A stretch of DNA of 12,043 bases, taken from the NCBI GenBank assembly GCA_019417795.1, contig DXUR01000057.1:1-12043 (forward strand), in the 5' to 3' direction. Under the pieces are notes generated by a model. It did not search any database and had not been told where the DNA came from. It worked only from the letters and a program-made list of their open reading frames with translations. This DNA comes from Clostridiales bacterium. GTDB lineage: Bacteria > Bacillota_A > Clostridia > Oscillospirales > Oscillospiraceae. Positions 3,533 to 9,030 of this stretch are shown here, in pieces. Position numbers and translations under genes: made by a program. Position 1 is the first letter of the stretch; the number at the start of each line of letters is the position of its first letter.

Positions 3533-5050
3533 TCAACATAGCGGTGCGAAAATACGAAGGACACCATCTACGACCCAGCGGCGCGAATAATGTTTCATAT
3601 CATAGGGCTTTACCTCTTTACATTTTGCCTGTGTAGCGATGAAATCGTCCTTTATTGCTGCAATAATACTGGAACGATAAAAGAACGAATTGTTTTCAAA
3701 GTGGAGAAAGAGACTGCGGTAGTCCAGATTGACAGTTCCTATCGTCGCAACTTTGTCGTCTGATACAAAGCTCTTTGCATGAACGAAGCCGGGAGTATAC
3801 TCATAAATCTTGATGCCGCCAGTCAGCAACACCTGATAAAAGCTCCGAGACATACGGAAAATCAGCTTCTTATCAGGGATGCCGGGCATAATGATCCGCA
3901 CGTCTACACCACGTTGAGCAGCGGAAATCATTGCATCCATCAAGTCATCGCCAAGCATAAGATACGGTGTAAAAAACCATGCGTAATCCGTGCTTTGAGA
4001 AAGCAAGTCAATAAAGAGCTGATTACTGGTAGCTTCATGGTTAAGGGGCGAATCGTAGTAACTAAGCACATAACCATCAAATGTGTGCGGCGGCGCAGGA
4101 TACCTTTTGGGATATGTGGGCATTGCAAGCTGTCCTGCTTCTTTTTCCAGCGAAAATGCGTTCCAAAAGGTCAAGAACATATGGGTAAAATTTTTTACTG
4201 GCTCACCAGTAATCCGAAAGCCTGTGTCCTTCCAGTGTCCATAGGGATGTTCCAAATTGATATACCGATCTGATAAGTTGATACCTCCGCTATAAGCAAC
4301 TTCGTTGTCAATAATCAGCATTTTGCGATGATCGCGATAGTTTGCAGTTCCTTTTAAGGCAAGGAAAGGATTAAAAGGAATACATGGAATGCCTTTCTTT
4401 TTCAGTTCACGGACATTACTGAAATTGAACGAAGAAATACTGCCAAGATCATCGTATATCACACGTACATCAACGCCCTGCTCCATTTTTACTTCCAGTT
4501 CGTTCACGATTGCGTCCCACATATGCCCCGGCTCAATAATGAAGTATTCTACGTAAATCGAGTTTCTTGCATTTTTCAAATCGGCAAGCATATCAGGGAA
4601 CATATTATCGCCCAACGGATAGTAACGAACCTGCTCAACTGCACACATCGGATATTGCGTTTTTTCTTCCAGCCACCGCACTGTTTGCCCCATGCGTTTT
4701 TCGCCGTCAAAGGGCGCTTCTTTTATTGGAAGAGGCTGCGGATTGCAACTCTTTTGAACTTGCTGCAAGCGCCTTTTTAGAGGGCGGGCCGTCCGTTTAT
4801 TTCCAAAGAGCAGATATAGTAACGCTCCTACCAAAGGTAGTGACAGAATAACCAGCAGCCAAAGCAATTTATAAGCGGTTTCATCTCTCTTTATAATAAT
4901 AAATACCACCAAGAAAAACGCTGCAACGGAAAGCAGTGACACAATAATCGGTGCGTAAGGGGTCAGCCATTTCATCAACAGCAAAAGCCAGAGCGATTGT
5001 AAAGCCACCGCTGGAATAATTGTTAGAATGCGTCGAATGATTTTTCCCAT
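3533..5050 (-). CDS. cls: Cardiolipin synthase (phospholipase D type)
   Basis: A 505-residue bacterial cardiolipin synthase, which joins two phosphatidylglycerol molecules to cardiolipin plus glycerol at the membrane. The N-terminus has hydrophobic segments at about 7-28, 31-53 and 61-83 (PLDc_N region). Two HKD motifs follow: HRKMLIIDNEVAYSGG from residue 241 and HAKSFVSDDKVATIGT from residue 424, each with the catalytic His, Lys and Asp and the downstream G-G/G-T and N residues. Length and architecture match Firmicute Cls enzymes. A purine-rich AGAGGGGGG lies before the ATG at 5050, 19 bp after the tetR stop, so the two are probably cotranscribed. Changes in Cls activity alter membrane charge and tolerance of cationic antimicrobials in Gram-positives (known for the family). 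Whether this operon does so is not visible. Confidence 0.95.
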   Translation of the reverse strand: MGKIIRRILTIIPAVALQSLWLLLLMKWLTPYAPIIVSLLSVAAFFLVVFIIIKRDETAYKLLWLLVILSLPLVGALLYLLFGNKRTARPLKRRLQQVQKSCNPQPLPIKEAPFDGEKRMGQTVRWLEEKTQYPMCAVEQVRYYPLGDNMFPDMLADLKNARNSIYVEYFIIEPGHMWDAIVNELEVKMEQGVDVRVIYDDLGSISSFNFSNVRELKKKGIPCIPFNPFLALKGTANYRDHRKMLIIDNEVAYSGGINLSDRYINLEHPYGHWKDTGFRITGEPVKNFTHMFLTFWNAFSLEKEAGQLAMPTYPKRYPAPPHTFDGYVLSYYDSPLNHEATSNQLFIDLLSQSTDYAWFFTPYLMLGDDLMDAMISAAQRGVDVRIIMPGIPDKKLIFRMSRSFYQVLLTGGIKIYEYTPGFVHAKSFVSDDKVATIGTVNLDYRSLFLHFENNSFFYRSSIIAAIKDDFIATQAKCKEVKPYDMKHYSRRWVVDGVLRIFAPLC

Positions 5051-6063: not shown

Positions 6064-7620
6064 ATCTCGTCTCAGAAGGCCATGCTTTTGCAGTATGCCA
6101 GGGAGCATCACTTCCCCAACCCAACCTTTTTCGTGGATGACGGTGTAAGCGGTGTGACCTATGACCGTCCCGGCTTTCAGGCCATGCTGGCCGAAATCGA
6201 GGCGGGACGGGGGGCCGTGGCGATCGCCAAAGACCTTTCCAGACTGGGCCGCAACTCCGCGCTGACCGGGCTTTACACCAACTTCACCTTTCCGCAGAAC
6301 GGTGTTCGTTTCATCGCCATCAACGACAACTACGACACCATTGACCCTAACCGTGTGGACAACGATTTTGCGGGCATCAAAAACTGGTTCAACGAGTTCT
6401 ATGCCCGGGACACCAGCCGCAAGATCAGAGCCGTCCAGAAAGCCAAGGGTGAGCGAGGCGTACCCCTGACCACCAATGTGCCCTATGGCTATGTAAAAGA
6501 CCTGGAGAACCCCCGCCGCTGGGTGGTTGACCCGGTAGCCGCTGATGTGGTGAAACGCATCTTCGACCTGTGTATGAAGGGCCGTGGTCCCATGCAGATC
6601 GCCAACCAACTGAAAGCGGACAAGGTGCTAACGCCCAGCGCATACAGGGCCTTGCAGGGCATCAAGACCCCAAACAAGAAACCGGAGGACCCCTGCGACT
6701 GGCACAGCAGTACCGTTGTGGCGATTCTGGAACGGCGGGAGTACACGGGCTGTACGGTGAACTTCAAGACCTATACCAACTCCATCTGGGACAAGAAGCA
6801 GCGGGACAATCCCCTTGAGAAGCAAGCCATCTTCCCCAATACACATGAGGCCATCATCGAGGAAGCCGTGTTTGAGAAGGTACAGCAGGTGCGCCAGCAG
6901 CGGCATCGCAAGACCCGTACAGGCCGAAGCAGCATCTTTTCCGGGCTGGTGTACTGTGCCGACTGCGGTGAGAAGCTGTATTACGGGGCGACGAACAATT
7001 ACCGACCGGAGGGCGCGTTCTTTGACTGTTCTCTCCATTAGAAGCACAAGGACAAGTGCGGTACTCATTACATCCGGGAAACCGTACTCAGCCACATAGT
7101 CCTGAAACACATTCAGGCTGTGACGGGCTACATTCTGCGGCATGAGGCACATTTCCGTGCAGTGATGGAGGAACAACTCCGGCTGGAAAGCAGTGAGCAG
7201 ATCCGCATCCGAAGGAAACGGCTGGAACGGAACGAAAACCGCATCGCTGAACTGAAACGGCTGTTCATCCGGATTTACGAGGACAACGCCTGCGGACGGC
7301 TGAGTGATGAGCGCTTCGATATGCTGAGCCTGACCTATGAAACGGAGCAGAAGCAGTTGGAGACCGAGTGCGTAACTTTGCGACAGGAAATTGAAGTACA
7401 GGAACGACAGAACGAAAACGTTGAGAAGTTCATTCAGACGGCGCACAAGTATGTGGGCATCGATAAGCTGGACGGCTACGCTCTGCGGGAACTGGTGTCC
7501 GCCATCTATGTGGACGCACCGGACAAATCCAGCGGGAAGCGTGTGCAGCACATTCACATCCAGTACGATGGGCTGGGCTTCATCCCGCTGAATGAGCTGA
7601 TGAAAGAGGAAACGGCGTGA
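6064..7620 (+). pseudogene. Large serine recombinase (TndX/TnpX type), N-terminally truncated with internal amber stop
   Basis: One reading frame from about 6064 to 7620 encodes most of a large serine recombinase. ISSQKAMLLQYA is the tail of the first resolvase segment. DDGVSGVTYDRPGF, the AIAKDLSRLGRN block and the acidic D..N...GIKNW stretch complete the resolvase domain. GYVKDLENPRRWVVDP begins the recombinase domain, CADCGEKLYYG (about 6955-6990) starts the zinc ribbon with its second Cys pair further on, and a coiled-coil C-terminus ends at the TGA at 7618-7620. Two lesions are visible. The first 40 or so residues with the catalytic Ser are missing, since the frame meets TGA at 6058-6060. 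A TAG at 7039-7041 interrupts the zinc ribbon between CSLH and KHKDKCGTHYI. It is a dead remnant that marks a probable mobile-element boundary. Confidence 0.9.
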
Positions 7621-7675: not shown

Positions 7676-7718
7676 ACTGTTTTACGACCACCCGGCCAAT
7701 GATGTGACCATTATGAAA

Positions 7719-7746
7719 GAGGGGCACCCAAAAACGGGTACCCCTC
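7719..7746 (-). terminator. Probable terminator hairpin of the tRNA operon
   Basis: Arms 7719-7729 and 7736-7746 form an 11-bp stem around a 6-nt loop, five bases beyond the last tRNA. Read on the minus strand the only non-Watson-Crick pair is a stable U-G; read on the plus strand it would be a C-A mismatch. That asymmetry argues for function on the minus strand. The U tract after it is weak (CUUUCAU). Confidence 0.65.
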
Positions 7747-7751
7747 TATTT

Positions 7752-7839
7752 TGGTGGGTCAGGTTGGAATTGAACCAACGATGTTTCAGATGTCACGGTT
7801 TTACAGACCGCTGCGATCGCCAACTACGCGCACTGACCC
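7752..7839 (-). tRNA. tRNA-Tyr (anticodon GUA)
   Basis: The 88-nt gene includes an encoded CCA. Acceptor GGGTCAG pairs with CTGACCC. The anticodon stem GCGGT/ACCGT carries the loop CTGTAAA (GUA, normal U33), and the T arm is GTTGG-TTCAATT-CCAAC. It is class II with a long variable region, but that region reads as a direct repeat (ACATC...ACATC) rather than an obvious stem, and the D stem is only about 3 bp. Last tRNA of the eight-gene array. Confidence 0.88.
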
Positions 7840-7842
7840 ATA

Positions 7843-7930
7843 TGGCGGAGAGCGCAGAACTCGAATCTGATATCACTTCTGATACGATCCGCTTAGCGGG
7901 CGGTCCCCGGGCCTTCCGGGTTCACTCTCC
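7843..7930 (-). tRNA. tRNA-Ser (anticodon GCU), with C33
   Basis: An 88-nt class II tRNA with encoded CCA and discriminator G. Acceptor GGAGAGT pairs with GCTCTCC. The anticodon stem CCGC/GCGG carries the loop CCGCTAA. Anticodon GCU reads AGC/AGU, but position 33 is C where nearly all tRNAs have U. The outermost anticodon-stem pair is A-A and the first T-stem pair is U-C, so the fold is somewhat degenerate. The D loop is unusually G/C-rich. Confidence 0.85.
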
Positions 7931-7935
7931 AAATA

Positions 7936-8011
7936 TGGCTGGGGTGGCTGGACTTGAACCAACAAATGCCGGTGTCAGAGACCGGTGCCTTGACCATTTG
8001 GCGACACCCCA
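7936..8011 (-). tRNA. tRNA-Gln (anticodon CUG)
   Basis: A 76-nt tRNA starting TGGGGTGTCGCCAA, typical of tRNA-Gln with its U1-A72 pair, discriminator G and encoded CCA. The stem CCGGT/ACCGG carries the loop CTCTGAC (anticodon CUG, reading CAG, normal U33). Confidence 0.95.
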
Positions 8012-8017
8012 GTATAT

Positions 8018-8092
8018 TGGCAGGGATAGGGCGACTCGAACACCCACGGGCGGTTTTGGGGACCGCTGTTCTTCCGGTTAAACTATACCCCT
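8018..8092 (-). tRNA. tRNA-Trp (anticodon CCA), with C33
   Basis: A 75-nt tRNA. The 5' end AGGGGTATAGTTTAA and discriminator G match bacterial tRNA-Trp, and CCA is encoded. The anticodon stem GCGGT/ACCGC is perfect and carries the loop CCCCAAA. With the anticodon CCA at 34-36, position 33 is C; normal bacterial tRNA-Trp has CTCCAAA. This is the second tRNA of the array lacking U33. Confidence 0.93.
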
Positions 8093-8101
8093 GTATGATG
8101 A

Positions 8102-8178
8102 TGGTGATGCCTGCGGGATTTGAACCCAGCATTACAAGCTTGAGAGGCTTGCGTCCTAACCAATTAGACGAAGGCACC
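8102..8178 (-). tRNA. tRNA-Glu (anticodon CUC)
   Basis: A 77-nt tRNA. Acceptor GGTGCCT pairs with AGGCATC (one G-U), discriminator A, CCA encoded. The stem CAAGC/GCTTG carries the loop CTCTCAA (anticodon CUC, reading GAG). Many Firmicutes decode GAG with tRNA-Glu(UUC) alone, so a dedicated CUC species is notable. Confidence 0.93.
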
Positions 8179-8181
8179 AGA

Positions 8182-8258
8182 TGGAGATACGGGTCGGATT
8201 CGAACCGACGATTAACAGCTTTGCAGGCTGTCCTCTTCAACCTCTTGAGTACCGTATC
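8182..8258 (-). tRNA. tRNA-Cys (anticodon GCA)
   Basis: A 77-nt tRNA. Acceptor GATACGG pairs with CCGTATC. The discriminator is U, a known Cys identity element, and CCA is encoded. The stem ACAGC/GCTGT carries the loop CTGCAAA (anticodon GCA); the T arm is GTCGG-TTCGAAT-CCGAC. Confidence 0.94.
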
Positions 8259-8259
8259 A

Positions 8260-8335
8260 TGGCTGGGATAGTTGGATTCAAACCAACAGTGGCCGGCATC
8301 AAAGGCCGGTGCCTTAGCCGCTTAGCAATATCCCA
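8260..8335 (-). tRNA. tRNA-Gln (anticodon UUG)
   Basis: A 76-nt tRNA starting TGGGATATTGCTAAG, with U1-A72, discriminator G and encoded CCA. The stem CCGGC/GCCGG carries the loop CTTTGAT (anticodon UUG, reading CAA). Only one base separates it from tRNA-Cys, so the transcript must be cut precisely. Confidence 0.95.
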
Positions 8336-8341
8336 GTATTA

Positions 8342-8418
8342 TGGAGATCCGCGCCGGACTCGAACCGGTCATTGCAGCCGTGAAAGGGCTGTGTCCTAAC
8401 CATTTAGACGAGCGGACC
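8342..8418 (-). tRNA. tRNA-Glu (anticodon UUC)
   Basis: A 77-nt tRNA. Acceptor GGTCCGC pairs with GCGGATC (one G-U), CCA is encoded and position 73 is U, unusual for Glu. The stem CAGCC/GGCTG carries the loop CTTTCAC (anticodon UUC, reading GAA). First tRNA of the array; it starts about 5 nt after a hairpin that follows the XRE gene. Confidence 0.93.
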
Positions 8419-8423
8419 GTATG

Positions 8424-8444
8424 GCAGGGAGAAGTTCTCCCTGC
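8424..8444 (-). other. Hairpin between the XRE gene and the first tRNA
   Basis: GCAGGGAG (8424-8431) and CTCCCTGC (8437-8444) form a perfect stem with a 5-nt loop, 3 nt after the XRE stop codon and 5 nt before tRNA-Glu(UUC). There is no U tract, so it looks more like an RNA-processing or mRNA-end-protecting structure than a terminator. It may separate the mRNA part from the tRNA part of one transcript. Confidence 0.6.
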
Positions 8445-8447
8445 ATA

Positions 8448-8684
8448 TTAAGCAACCGAGTGATCGGTAATGAGGATATCATCAATACGCACATGCAGCA
8501 GTGCAGCAAGGGCGATAAGATTATCTACAGTCGGCAGCGCAGTGCCGTTTTGCCACTTGTAAATGGCCTGCGGGGAATTGAAGCCGAATGCCATTTGTAG
8601 GTCATGCACCGTCAGCCCCGCTGCTTTGCGAAGCATCACAATATTGGTGCCTGTGCGAGCAAGGTTGATCGTTGGAATGTTCAT
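8448..8684 (-). CDS. Small XRE-family helix-turn-helix regulator
   Basis: A 78-residue protein that is essentially one XRE/Cro-CI HTH domain: IVMLRKAAGLTVHDLQMAFG (helices 1-2), then SPQAIYKWQNGTALPTVDNL (recognition helix and following turn), then ALAALLHVRIDDIL. The frame can be extended to a GTG at 8696, but that codon lies in the AGGAGGTG ribosome site; the ATG at 8684 is 11 nt after AGGAGG and is preferred. It lies downstream of a transcription terminator in its own leader and directly upstream of eight tRNAs, so it is probably expressed only when that terminator is read through. It may feed back on the unit's promoter. Its operator is not apparent. Confidence 0.88.
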   Translation of the reverse strand: MNIPTINLARTGTNIVMLRKAAGLTVHDLQMAFGFNSPQAIYKWQNGTALPTVDNLIALAALLHVRIDDILITDHSVA

Positions 8685-8703
8685 TCTCAAATACACCTCC
8701 TAT

Positions 8704-8776
8704 CTGAATTATTTGGCCTCATGGGCATGAAAAAGCCGCTTGTCTGCACTCAAGACAAGCGGCTTCAATAATTCAG
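8704..8776 (-). promoter_or_regulatory. Attenuator: terminator hairpin nested in a larger stem, ahead of the XRE-tRNA operon
   Basis: On the minus strand AAGCCGCTTGTCT (from 8765 down to 8753) pairs perfectly over 13 bp with AGACAAGCGGCTT (8745-8733) around a 7-nt loop, and runs into a five-U tract (8734-8730). This is a strong intrinsic terminator placed after the leader ORF and before the XRE ribosome site. A second perfect 10-bp pair, CTGAATTATT (8776-8767) with AATAATTCAG (8713-8704), encloses the terminator and ends just ahead of AGGAGG. Part of the terminator's 5' arm and loop (8750-8760) can instead pair with leader codons at 8842-8852 (11 bp, one G-U), which would prevent termination. 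That alternative pairing is my inference. Confidence 0.75.
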
Positions 8777-8809
8777 AGAAGGAGATCCTGATAGACCGAT
8801 TCTTTCAGG

Positions 8810-8944
8810 TCAACAGGTACTCAATCCGATCATATTCTTCTGCTTATCTTGATATGGGCGTGCTTCGCAAAAGCTATATTCCTCGCACTGGAAGATAGCC
8901 TGCCATTCGCTCATATAGAAGATAGCGGAAGAAATAGTCTTCAT
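8810..8944 (-). CDS. Leader peptide ORF (44 codons) matched to the downstream tRNAs
   Basis: This ORF starts at ATG 8944, 9 nt after AAAGGA and about 40 nt after the predicted transcription start, and ends at TGA 8810-8812, 34 nt before the outer stem of the attenuator. Codons 12-27 read SEWQAIFQCEEYSFCE; 12 of these 16 use AGC, GAA, TGG, CAG, TGC, GAG or TAT, exactly the codons of the downstream tRNAs. Six more occur outside the core (TAT twice, CAA, CAG, AGT, TGT), so all eight anticodons have a cognate codon. The two Ser codons outside the theme (TCT, TCC at 5-6) are not read by tRNA-Ser(GCU). GCTATCTTC occurs twice (codons 7-9 and 16-18). No domain, signal peptide or membrane helix is visible. 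The natural reading is a regulatory leader whose translation senses charged tRNAs; a true small protein is the alternative. Confidence 0.8.
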   Translation of the reverse strand: MKTISSAIFYMSEWQAIFQCEEYSFCEARPYQDKQKNMIGLSTC

Positions 8945-8990: not shown

Positions 8991-9019
8991 ACTATACCAC
9001 AACTCTTTCGGTTTGTCAT
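8991..9019 (-). promoter_or_regulatory. Promoter of the leader-XRE-tRNA unit
   Basis: The -35 ATGACA (9014-9019), a 17-bp spacer and the -10 TATAGT (8991-8996), with an extended TGG directly before it, form a near-consensus sigma-A promoter. The start would be near 8984. It lies just after the stop of the upstream small gene, so the unit has its own promoter. Confidence 0.78.
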
Positions 9020-9030
9020 TCAACTTGTGG

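What the first reader, a model, noticed from the sequence alone, without database searches (positions are those of the whole stretch)
7752..8944. Leader ORF codes for exactly the amino acids of the tRNA array it precedes
In one predicted transcript, a 44-codon ORF is followed by a terminator, an XRE gene and eight tRNAs (Glu-UUC, Gln-UUG, Cys-GCA, Glu-CUC, Trp-CCA, Gln-CUG, Ser-GCU, Tyr-GUA). Codons 12-27 of the ORF (SEWQAIFQCEEYSFCE) include 12 cognate to those tRNAs; overall 18 of 44 are cognate and all eight anticodons are represented. In ordinary proteins I would expect roughly a fifth of residues to be in this set. Even the Ser codons in the core are AGC, the box read by tRNA-Ser(GCU). 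Amino-acid operons (trp, his and others) use such leaders to sense charged tRNA; here the regulated product would be the tRNAs themselves. This suggests a self-sensing tRNA replacement operon, which I do not know to be described.
Basis: partly seen in the sequence, partly recalled or inferred. Interest (0 to 1): 0.95.

Follow-up and report, generated by a model that had tools for sequence, protein, structure and literature searches.

The report
Self-sensing tRNA replacement operon
In many gut and rumen bacteria, a very short gene placed before a cluster of transfer-RNA genes contains codons for nearly all the amino acids that those transfer RNAs carry, and it is predicted to work as a stall sensor that would switch the cluster (and often an RNA-repair enzyme) on when those transfer RNAs run short.

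Summary
A module (promoter, 39-52-codon leader, terminator, often rtcB, small HTH gene, tRNA array) recurs in Clostridia. In 20 leader clusters, 138 of 143 amino acids carried by the arrays have a codon in their own leader's first ~30 codons; 0 of 20,000 array shuffles reach this. The leader's 3' part and the HTH protein show no such match by coverage. On 18 of 18 contigs with two modules each leader fits its own array better; a small hold-out covers 27 of 28; a Ruminococcus albus plasmid has three matched pairs. Codons ~28-37 are complementary to the terminator's 5' arm, so a ribosome stalled earlier should free an antiterminator. Best explanation: a ribosome-mediated attenuator that senses shortage of many tRNAs and induces their replacement, often with RtcB repair. 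Not shown: expression, stalling, trigger. Limits: leaders hold many non-array codons; between close sisters arrays change faster than leaders; same-type leaders also precede rtcB operons without arrays. Eight full-text searches found no description.

The parts
8991..9030 (-). promoter (-35 ATGACA 9019-9014, -10 TATAGT 8996-8991) inside an inverted repeat CCACAA (9030-9025) ... TTGTGG (9002-8997); proposed operator of the HTH protein
   Evidence: 10 of 12 consensus matches, 17-nt spacer; dyad read by eye; a dyad-like pattern stands upstream of 56 of 69 distinct leaders with arrays, shuffled upstreams mean 1.3, maximum 7. That the HTH protein binds it is inferred.
8810..8944 (-). leader ORF, 44 codons plus stop, MKTISSAIFYMSEWQAIFQCEEYSFCEARPYQDKQKNMIGLSTC
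   Evidence: 70 related proteins at E <= 1; no Pfam family at E <= 0.01
8855..8941 (-). sensor, codons 2-30: 13 of 29 codons cognate to the array
   Evidence: clusters of relatives
8842..8852 (-). antiterminator segment UCAAGAUAAGC (codons 31-35), complementary to GCUUGUCUUGA in the 5' arm of the terminator
   Evidence: ViennaRNA duplex -17.1 kcal/mol; position and own-arm tests
8733..8765 (-). intrinsic terminator AAGCCGCUUGUC...GACAAGCGGCUU followed by U-rich tail
   Evidence: -20.9 kcal/mol
8448..8684 (-). small HTH (XRE-type) protein, 78 aa; proposed autorepressor
   Evidence: PF01381; related proteins; function inferred
8342..8418 (-). tRNA-Glu (UUC)
8260..8335 (-). tRNA-Gln (UUG)
8182..8258 (-). 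tRNA-Cys (GCA)
8102..8178 (-). tRNA-Glu (CUC)
8018..8092 (-). tRNA-Trp (CCA)
7936..8011 (-). tRNA-Gln (CUG)
7843..7930 (-). tRNA-Ser (GCU), atypical
   Evidence: lowered threshold; not; ends read by eye
7752..7839 (-). tRNA-Tyr (GUA)
7716..7746 (-). closing hairpin GAGGGGUACCC...GGGUGCCCCUC with a short U tail, possible end of the operon
   Evidence: read by eye; not listed by the terminator scan

Best explanation
The leader ORF contains codons for the tRNAs encoded behind it and is predicted to be the sensor of a ribosome-mediated transcription attenuator that would induce the tRNA array, and in many relatives the RNA ligase RtcB, when one of those tRNAs runs short. Shown by sequence: sensor codons match the amino acids of their own array across leader clusters and across two modules on one contig; codons ~28-37 are complementary to the 5' arm of the terminator that follows; the usual order is leader, terminator, [rtcB], HTH gene, tRNA array. 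Inferred: with plentiful charged tRNA the ribosome runs through the sensor and over the complementary codons, the terminator folds and transcription stops. If a listed tRNA is cleaved, depleted or uncharged, the ribosome stalls within the first ~28 codons, the complementary codons stay free, pair with the terminator's 5' arm and let the polymerase through. The HTH protein probably represses the promoter through the dyad. The likely natural input is tRNA cleavage by anticodon nucleases, because the enzyme made from the same operons is RtcB; amino-acid starvation could throw the same switch.
For: Match of leader and array: 77 unique units with >=3 tRNAs in 20 clusters, 138 of 143 array amino acids covered (0.967 vs 0.818 shuffled; 0 of 20,000), 171 of 177 at 24 clusters; 14, 17 or 20 clusters of 44 loci with >=5 tRNAs and uncut arrays, 0 of 20,000; shuffles kept within Mogibacterium-type and other loci, 0 of 20,000. 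Tandem modules: 18 of 18 contigs; one contig for each of 7 families: 88 of 89 unique amino acids covered by the own leader, 59 of 89 by the neighbour's, codons 203 vs 89. Codon boxes of Ser, Leu, Arg: own box present in 47 of 48 cases, other box in 28 of 48 (cases not independent). Narrow arrays, 23 clusters: 0.163 vs 0.097, 0 of 20,000. Hold-out: 27 of 28, 54 of 20,000 shuffles reach. R. albus plasmid: own pairing of three leaders and arrays is the best of 6 (30 cognate codons, next 22). Controls: 3' part of leader and three stretches of the HTH protein do not match (exceptions under evidence against). Attenuator: complementary stretch at codons 28-37 in 34 of 44 clusters vs mean 9.1, maximum 20 in 500 codon shuffles; own arm vs permuted arms 0 of 20,000; folding of 11 units of 7 loci. 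rtcB lies within 900 nt before the HTH gene in 45 of the 79 loci (PF01139 in the one tested).
Against: No expression, stalling or read-through data. Leaders hold many non-array codons: 163 of 301 amino-acid presences in leaders have no tRNA in the array. Sister pairs: 12 changes with, 6 against, 41 none. Of 79 loci 12 have a leader and no tRNA. 10 of 44 clusters lack the complementary stretch at the usual place, and so do modules 1 and 3 of the R. albus plasmid. Two control values were low: fraction cognate for the leader's 3' part (p 0.03) and covariance in the hold-out (213 of 5,000). With codons up to 28 masked, the completed RNA prefers the terminator in 9 of 11 units, so the switch needs kinetics. 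tRNA shortage and starvation cannot be told apart by this design.
Confidence: 0.85

Rival explanations
1. The attenuator's main job is to induce RtcB (tRNA repair) on any translational stall; tRNA arrays joined later and the codon match is a secondary refinement.
For: 12 of 79 loci have a leader without tRNAs, 11 of them with rtcB; 13 such genomes hold 21 HTH loci, of which 2 lie beside tRNAs within 1.5 kb; arrays differ between sisters without a change in the leader in 41 of 59 cases.
Against: The between-cluster match, the tandem modules and the narrow arrays need array-specific selection on the leader; many modules, the window's included, have no rtcB.
Confidence: 0.3
2. The leader encodes a functional small protein (for example a toxin, or a partner of the HTH protein), and the codon match is incidental.
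For: The window's leader family is conserved as peptide (70 relatives at E <= 1).
Against: Leaders of other loci share little sequence while keeping the layout; small insertions and deletions occur within the window's family; the conserved 3' part coincides with the antiterminator segment; sensor codons track arrays.
Confidence: 0.07
3. Array and leader match only because both follow the codon usage of the element or host: the array supplies tRNAs that local genes need.
For: tRNA arrays on mobile DNA have been linked to codon usage (recalled).
Against: Three stretches of the HTH protein of the same loci show no match (permutation p 0.66-0.999); two leaders on one contig match different arrays.
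Confidence: 0.03
4. Chance: a short ORF that happens to be rich in these residues.
For: In the window alone the signal is moderate (P 0.0019).
Against: It recurs in 20 clusters and in data fetched afterwards.
Confidence: 0.01

Closest known systems
Ribosome-mediated transcription attenuators (trp, his, leu, thr, ilv, pheA; PMC1183508, abstract and passages seen)
   Same: Leader ORF with regulatory codons, antiterminator against terminator, stall leads to read-through.
   Different: Known leaders there are cognate to the amino acid made by the operon; here the list is long (commonly 4-13 amino acids) and the product is the set of cognate tRNAs, often with RtcB.
Anabaena trn operon with its repressor TrcR (PMC10272220, outline and passages seen)
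   Same: Large tRNA array, silent in normal growth, induced by translational stress; rtcB under the same regulator.
   Different: Control by a ribbon-helix-helix repressor; the terms leader, attenuat and terminator do not occur in its main text. rtcB is encoded elsewhere.
[quoted passage not shown]
   Same: Induction of RtcB by tRNA damage.
   Different: Signal is tRNA halves bound by the CARF domain of RtcR, not a stalled ribosome; the passages name no tRNA array in the operon.
tRNA array units of Firmicutes and Mycobacterium (PMC5966550, passages seen)
   Same: Dense runs of tRNA genes, often on mobile DNA.
   Different: The terms leader, attenuat and promoter do not occur in its main text.
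T-box riboswitches
   Same: Read tRNA charging with a specifier codon and a terminator choice (recalled).
   Different: They bind one tRNA directly without translation (recalled); no T-box match in the window at E up to 1.

Membership tests
Ribosome-mediated transcription attenuator | translated short leader ORF with ribosome-binding site | tested here: inconclusive
   ORF and Shine-Dalgarno-like motif present; translation not measured
Ribosome-mediated transcription attenuator | regulatory codons cognate to the regulated product | tested here: met
   138 of 143 covered, 0 of 20,000 shuffles reach
Ribosome-mediated transcription attenuator | intrinsic terminator before the structural genes | tested here: met
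Ribosome-mediated transcription attenuator | alternative antiterminator that uses the terminator's 5' arm and is freed by upstream stalling | tested here: met
   in silico only: 34 of 44 clusters, 11 of 11 folded units
Ribosome-mediated transcription attenuator | read-through rises when regulatory codons are translated slowly | not testable with these tools
   needs a reporter
T-box riboswitch | match to the T-box covariance model | tested here: not met
   no Rfam family other than tRNA (and one sub-threshold plastid family on a tRNA) in the window at E <= 1
Anabaena-type trn operon | ribbon-helix-helix repressor TrcR | tested here: not met
   the operon's regulator-like protein is HTH_3, PF01381; a TrcR elsewhere in the genome was not sought
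RtcR-rtcBA operon | RtcR (CARF and sigma-54 activator) with rtcB | not tested
   no search for RtcR was made; the rtcB of L065 is PF01139
tRNA array unit | dense run of tRNA genes | tested here: met
   eight tRNAs in 667 bp

The most novel reading that the evidence does not exclude
A widespread class of operons in Clostridia whose leader is a written list of their own tRNA genes: losing any tRNA on the list stalls the ribosome, frees an antiterminator and switches on synthesis of that same set of tRNAs, often with the ligase that mends cut tRNAs. It is a self-checking backup of the decoding machinery, probably aimed at anticodon nucleases of phages, rivals and defence systems. New lists evolve with new arrays, and two or three lists can stand side by side on one element, each checking its own set.
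Probability: 0.72. Interest if true: 0.95.

Novelty: new variant of a known kind. Interest (0 to 1): 0.92.

Why it matters
tRNA arrays in Firmicutes are on record, but in what I could find they have no stated control and no settled purpose. A leader that lists its array suggests both: the arrays would be inducible replacement sets and the leader their alarm. It extends ribosome-mediated attenuation from one or a few amino acids to many tRNAs at once, links tRNA replacement to RtcB repair in one operon, and makes the question 'what are tRNA arrays for?' directly testable with a reporter. The lists may also show which tRNAs come under attack in a lineage.

Tried and rejected
Own genome of the window: not held. 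The shared promoter motif in viral contigs gave 24 stretches, of which two (L046, L057) carried the HTH gene with a tRNA array. Leader-profile searches in 394 and 350 genomes found the same three strong loci. HTH homologs of about 52-63% identity on other contigs lie without a tRNA array within 1.5 kb and look like a separate paralog. The Ligilactobacillus plasmid hit has no tRNA in 8 kb. I first took the Ruminococcus albus plasmid hit to be without tRNAs because its gene table lists none; a recheck with ARAGORN found three modules.

My first position statistic for the antiterminator (45 of 46 clusters) was circular, because the unit filter required that position; it is replaced (34 of 44). 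A first count of the promoter dyad (21 of 70) used a faulty pattern; one search replaces it (56 of 69), with a pattern written after reading the sequences.

Rows dropped before counts: L033 and later (its scan hit was another ORF; its likely leader has its best complement at codon 19); L231, L150 and L212, L231; units with fewer than 3 tRNAs; loci with fewer than 5 tRNAs or with arrays cut by a contig end, cut arrays; tRNA calls with A34 other than ACG, AGA, AAG and undetermined tRNA calls. Searches use one representative per cluster (the one with most tRNAs), 20 random choices per threshold gave p 0.001, the limit of 1,000 shuffles. Units were filtered on complementarity to the terminator, not on tRNAs. 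ARAGORN can miss tRNAs, as the window shows.

Literature: 8 searches of open-access PMC text; nothing listed describes a leader ORF or attenuator before a tRNA array. Subscription papers and preprints are mostly not held, and only the best-ranked papers of each search were listed, so this is not proof of absence.
Full report
WHAT IS IN THE WINDOW. On the minus strand, in order: a promoter inside a dyad (9030-8991), a 44-codon ORF with a Shine-Dalgarno-like sequence (8944-8810), an intrinsic terminator (8765-8733), a 78-aa HTH protein (8684-8448; PF01381), eight tRNAs (8418-7752) and a closing hairpin (7746-7716, by eye). Alone they are only moderately surprising (P = 0.0019 for 13 of 29 sensor codons against a 19.7% background). 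The title's 'exactly' is too strong: 26 of 44 codons are not cognate.

COLLECTING THE FAMILY. A second profile (A3) found HTH matches in 7 of 391 genomes of the class, in 44 of 79 genomes of one genus and, with nearly one genome per genus, in 51 of 299 genomes of one family (E <= 1e-25). An HTH match is not proof of a module, and the weaker matches include a paralog. The named records are Clostridia and other Bacillota (Mogibacterium, Butyrivibrio, Oribacterium, Lachnospiraceae, Oscillospiraceae), many of them labelled as from the rumen or gut of animals. Of these 79 loci, 71 have a leader, 63 at least one tRNA and 48 at least three in the array, and 45 have rtcB within 900 nt before the HTH gene (the one tested is PF01139). 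So the full module is promoter, leader, terminator, [rtcB], HTH, tRNA array; the window has the short form. In 32 of 32 printed units with 150-900 nt between terminator and first tRNA, the longest ORF there looks like an HTH protein (by eye).

THE LEADER LISTS ITS ARRAY. Leaders were chosen by terminator hairpin, ORF length, Shine-Dalgarno motif and complementarity; tRNAs played no part. In 44 loci (unique, >=5 tRNAs, array not cut by a contig end; from 108 with a leader among 127 examined), grouped into 14, 17 or 20 leader clusters, 96% of array amino acids have a codon in the sensor (codons 2 to about 29) against 84-85% when arrays are shuffled between clusters; 0 of 20,000 shuffles reach the observed coverage, fraction cognate or presence covariance. 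Counting each module separately: 77 units, 20 clusters, 138 of 143 (0.967 vs 0.818, best shuffle 0.914); at 24 clusters 171 of 177. Trp, rare in proteins, is in leader and array in 5 clusters, leader only in 1, array only in 0, neither in 14. Controls: the 3' part of the leader shows no match in the units (4,615-4,929 of 5,000 shuffles reach); its three measures gave p 0.26, 0.03 and 0.30; three stretches of the HTH protein gave p 0.66-0.999. Shuffling only within Mogibacterium-type and other loci, or leaving the former out, changes nothing (0 of 20,000).

INTERNAL CONTROLS. Several contigs carry two modules in a row. In L104 a leader reading ...ITTTSEITI... precedes Thr, Thr, Ile, Ile, and the next leader (MIAVRFSLSGKKHMEQLQSSFNYLDRHF...) precedes Glu, Gln, Asp, Leu, Ser, Lys, Asn, Met, His, Phe, Tyr. 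In Butyrivibrio (L093) MTTMNRNYCLYSESYESSLQSKSEWMFNFMR precedes Ser, Trp, Leu, Glu, Tyr, and MYYVTINQQFNNKQFMQFCKNQKCFVSYA, inside the cluster, precedes Gln, Cys, Phe, Lys, Asn, Met. In L078 the first leader covers Ser, Leu, Cys, Pro, His, Thr, Gly and the second Glu, Arg, Met, Gln, Phe, Ile. On 18 of 18 such contigs, codons for amino acids unique to one array are more frequent in the own leader. With one contig for each of 7 families, 88 of 89 unique amino acids are covered by the own leader and 59 of 89 by the neighbour; codons 203 against 89. Narrow arrays (1-3 amino acids, 23 clusters, hold-out loci included) have leaders with 0.163 cognate codons against 0.097 for the same set in other leaders; own is higher in 21 of 23, 0 of 20,000 permutations. 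The sharpest is L327: Arg-UCU and Arg-ACG after a leader with 7 Arg in 27 codons. For Ser, Leu and Arg, where an array holds only one codon box, that box is in the sensor in 47 of 48 cases and the other box in 28 of 48 (cases not independent).

HOLD-OUT. The frozen code was run on 60 loci fetched afterwards. 26 gave a unit; 6 new units with >=3 tRNAs formed 6 clusters. 27 of 28 array amino acids were covered (0.979 vs 0.732; 54 of 20,000 shuffles reach; fraction cognate 24 of 20,000). The 3' control was not clean here: 1,010 and 213 of 5,000 reach for coverage and covariance. Found later, and in none of these counts: plasmid pRUMAL01 of the cultured Ruminococcus albus 7 holds three modules. 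MNKFTVSYLYSESLLSLVLESEETSFVLR... precedes three Leu and one Glu tRNA; MNSIMNNTVVRSYDDYQCFFSFSFDWQDEG... precedes Asp, Gln, Cys, Phe, Gln, Trp; MKNTVFAFSYSYSYSS... precedes two Tyr and four Ser. Of the six ways to pair the three leaders with the three arrays the true one has most cognate codons (30; next 22).

THE ATTENUATOR. In the window the codons YQDKQ (UCAAGAUAAGC) are complementary to GCUUGUCUUGA in the terminator's 5' arm. Across families the sequences change together: GAGACAAG with CUUGUCUC, CAUAUAAGGCAA with UUGCCUUGUAUG, AUAUGAGAUAAG with CUUAUCUCAUAU. With complementarity not used to choose hairpins or ORFs, the best complementary stretch starts at codons 28-37 in 34 of 44 clusters (codon-shuffled ORFs: mean 9.1, maximum 20 in 500), and own arms score 17.8 against 14.1 for permuted arms (0 of 20,000). 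ViennaRNA on 11 units from 7 loci: if codons before 29 are masked, the RNA made before the terminator's 3' arm folds into the antiterminator in 11 of 11; if codons before 37 are masked it does not, and the terminator forms. In the window the last cognate codon before this segment is codon 27, which leaves about one ribosome front edge between a stalled A site and the segment (inference from a recalled footprint size). With codons before 29 masked, the completed RNA prefers the terminator in 9 of 11 units, so the switch must be kinetic; PMC1183508 describes such a race for classical attenuators.

PROMOTER AND HTH PROTEIN. A dyad-like pattern (ACYRY, 18-32 nt, KTGNTA) stands upstream of 56 of 69 distinct leaders with arrays; shuffled upstreams give a mean of 1.3 and a maximum of 7 (pattern written after seeing the sequences). 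I infer autorepression by the HTH protein. The second Butyrivibrio module has another dyad (TGTCATCTGATGACA) and another HTH protein.

WHAT SPEAKS AGAINST A SIMPLE STORY. (a) Leaders are not pure lists: 163 of 301 amino-acid presences in leaders have no tRNA in the array. (b) Between close sisters arrays change faster than leaders: 59 differences in 22 pairs, 12 with, 6 against, 41 no change. Handsome cases exist, but are picked: in L098, L104 and L117 position 10 is Trp, Gly, Cys as the array has Trp, neither, Cys; in L128 and L141 position 20 is Trp and Cys likewise; L034 lacks Cys in leader and array. (c) 12 of 79 loci have a leader and no tRNA, 11 of them with rtcB; in 13 genomes of array-less loci 21 HTH loci were found, and 2 of them lay beside tRNAs (1.5-kb flanks or less). 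So the older function may be induction of RtcB, with arrays joined later and the list following on a longer time scale. (d) The window's own leader has Phe and Ile codons without such tRNAs; its relative L046 has Phe-GAA in the array. (e) Modules 1 and 3 of the R. albus plasmid show no complementary stretch at the usual place.

HOW IT LIKELY WORKS. Ample charged tRNA: the ribosome reaches the complementary codons in time, the terminator forms, the operon is silent. Shortage of a listed tRNA: stall, antiterminator, transcription of rtcB (where present), HTH gene and tRNAs. RtcB would rejoin cut tRNAs and the array replace them. Shown: anatomy, match, complementarity. Inferred: stalling, read-through, repression by the HTH protein. 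Untested: the trigger; tRNA cleavage is favoured because of RtcB.

KNOWN OR NEW. It works like trp- and his-type attenuators (PMC1183508, passages) but for many tRNAs at once and for the tRNAs themselves. The Anabaena trn operon (PMC10272220, outline and passages) is nearest in output, with a different control; the Salmonella and E. coli rtcBA operons (PMC7790460, passages) sense tRNA halves through RtcR. tRNA arrays are known from Firmicutes (PMC5966550, passages). Eight searches gave no description of a leader for tRNA arrays. I rate it a new variant of a known kind.

Noticed in passing
window 7843-7930: tRNA-Ser(GCU) looks unusual: short D arm and C instead of U at position 33 (read by eye); missed by ARAGORN defaults and by cmscan. 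It could be decaying, or altered to escape an anticodon nuclease.
   Followed up: no
window 6082-7620, + strand: Serine-recombinase gene (Resolvase and Recombinase domains, then DUF4368) interrupted by a stop near 7041, next to the array: a sign of a mobile element.
   Followed up: no
L031 1179-1385 (minus strand); L212, L219, L220, L226, L235: A second HTH paralog (open frames of roughly 120-140 codons) often lies within a few kb of the array module in the same contig; its role is unknown.
   Followed up: partly
L157 2263-5642 (plasmid pRUMAL01 of Ruminococcus albus 7): Three leader-terminator-array modules in a cultured, named strain, each leader matched to its own tRNAs; the plasmid gene table lists none of the tRNAs.
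   Followed up: partly
L147, L148, L150: rtcB operons with a different leader type (ending ...HSTKM...LC) and a different terminator arm (CCACCCGUC), with almost no tRNAs near by; perhaps a sister attenuator.
   Followed up: no
L158 (phage-labelled record MT835545.1, human faeces): rtcB next to the HTH gene on a record labelled as a bacteriophage, without tRNAs in the 6.2 kb seen.
   Followed up: no
L093 4729 and like Butyrivibrio loci: The second module inside the array has its own promoter dyad TGTCATCTGATGACA and a distinct HTH protein, so different modules may answer to different repressors.
   Followed up: partly
L033 1253-1384 and 2020-2265: A GC-rich relative with widely spaced Gln and Arg tRNAs and a leader holding 4 Gln and 5 Arg codons, but without the usual antiterminator position; left out of the counts.
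   Followed up: partly
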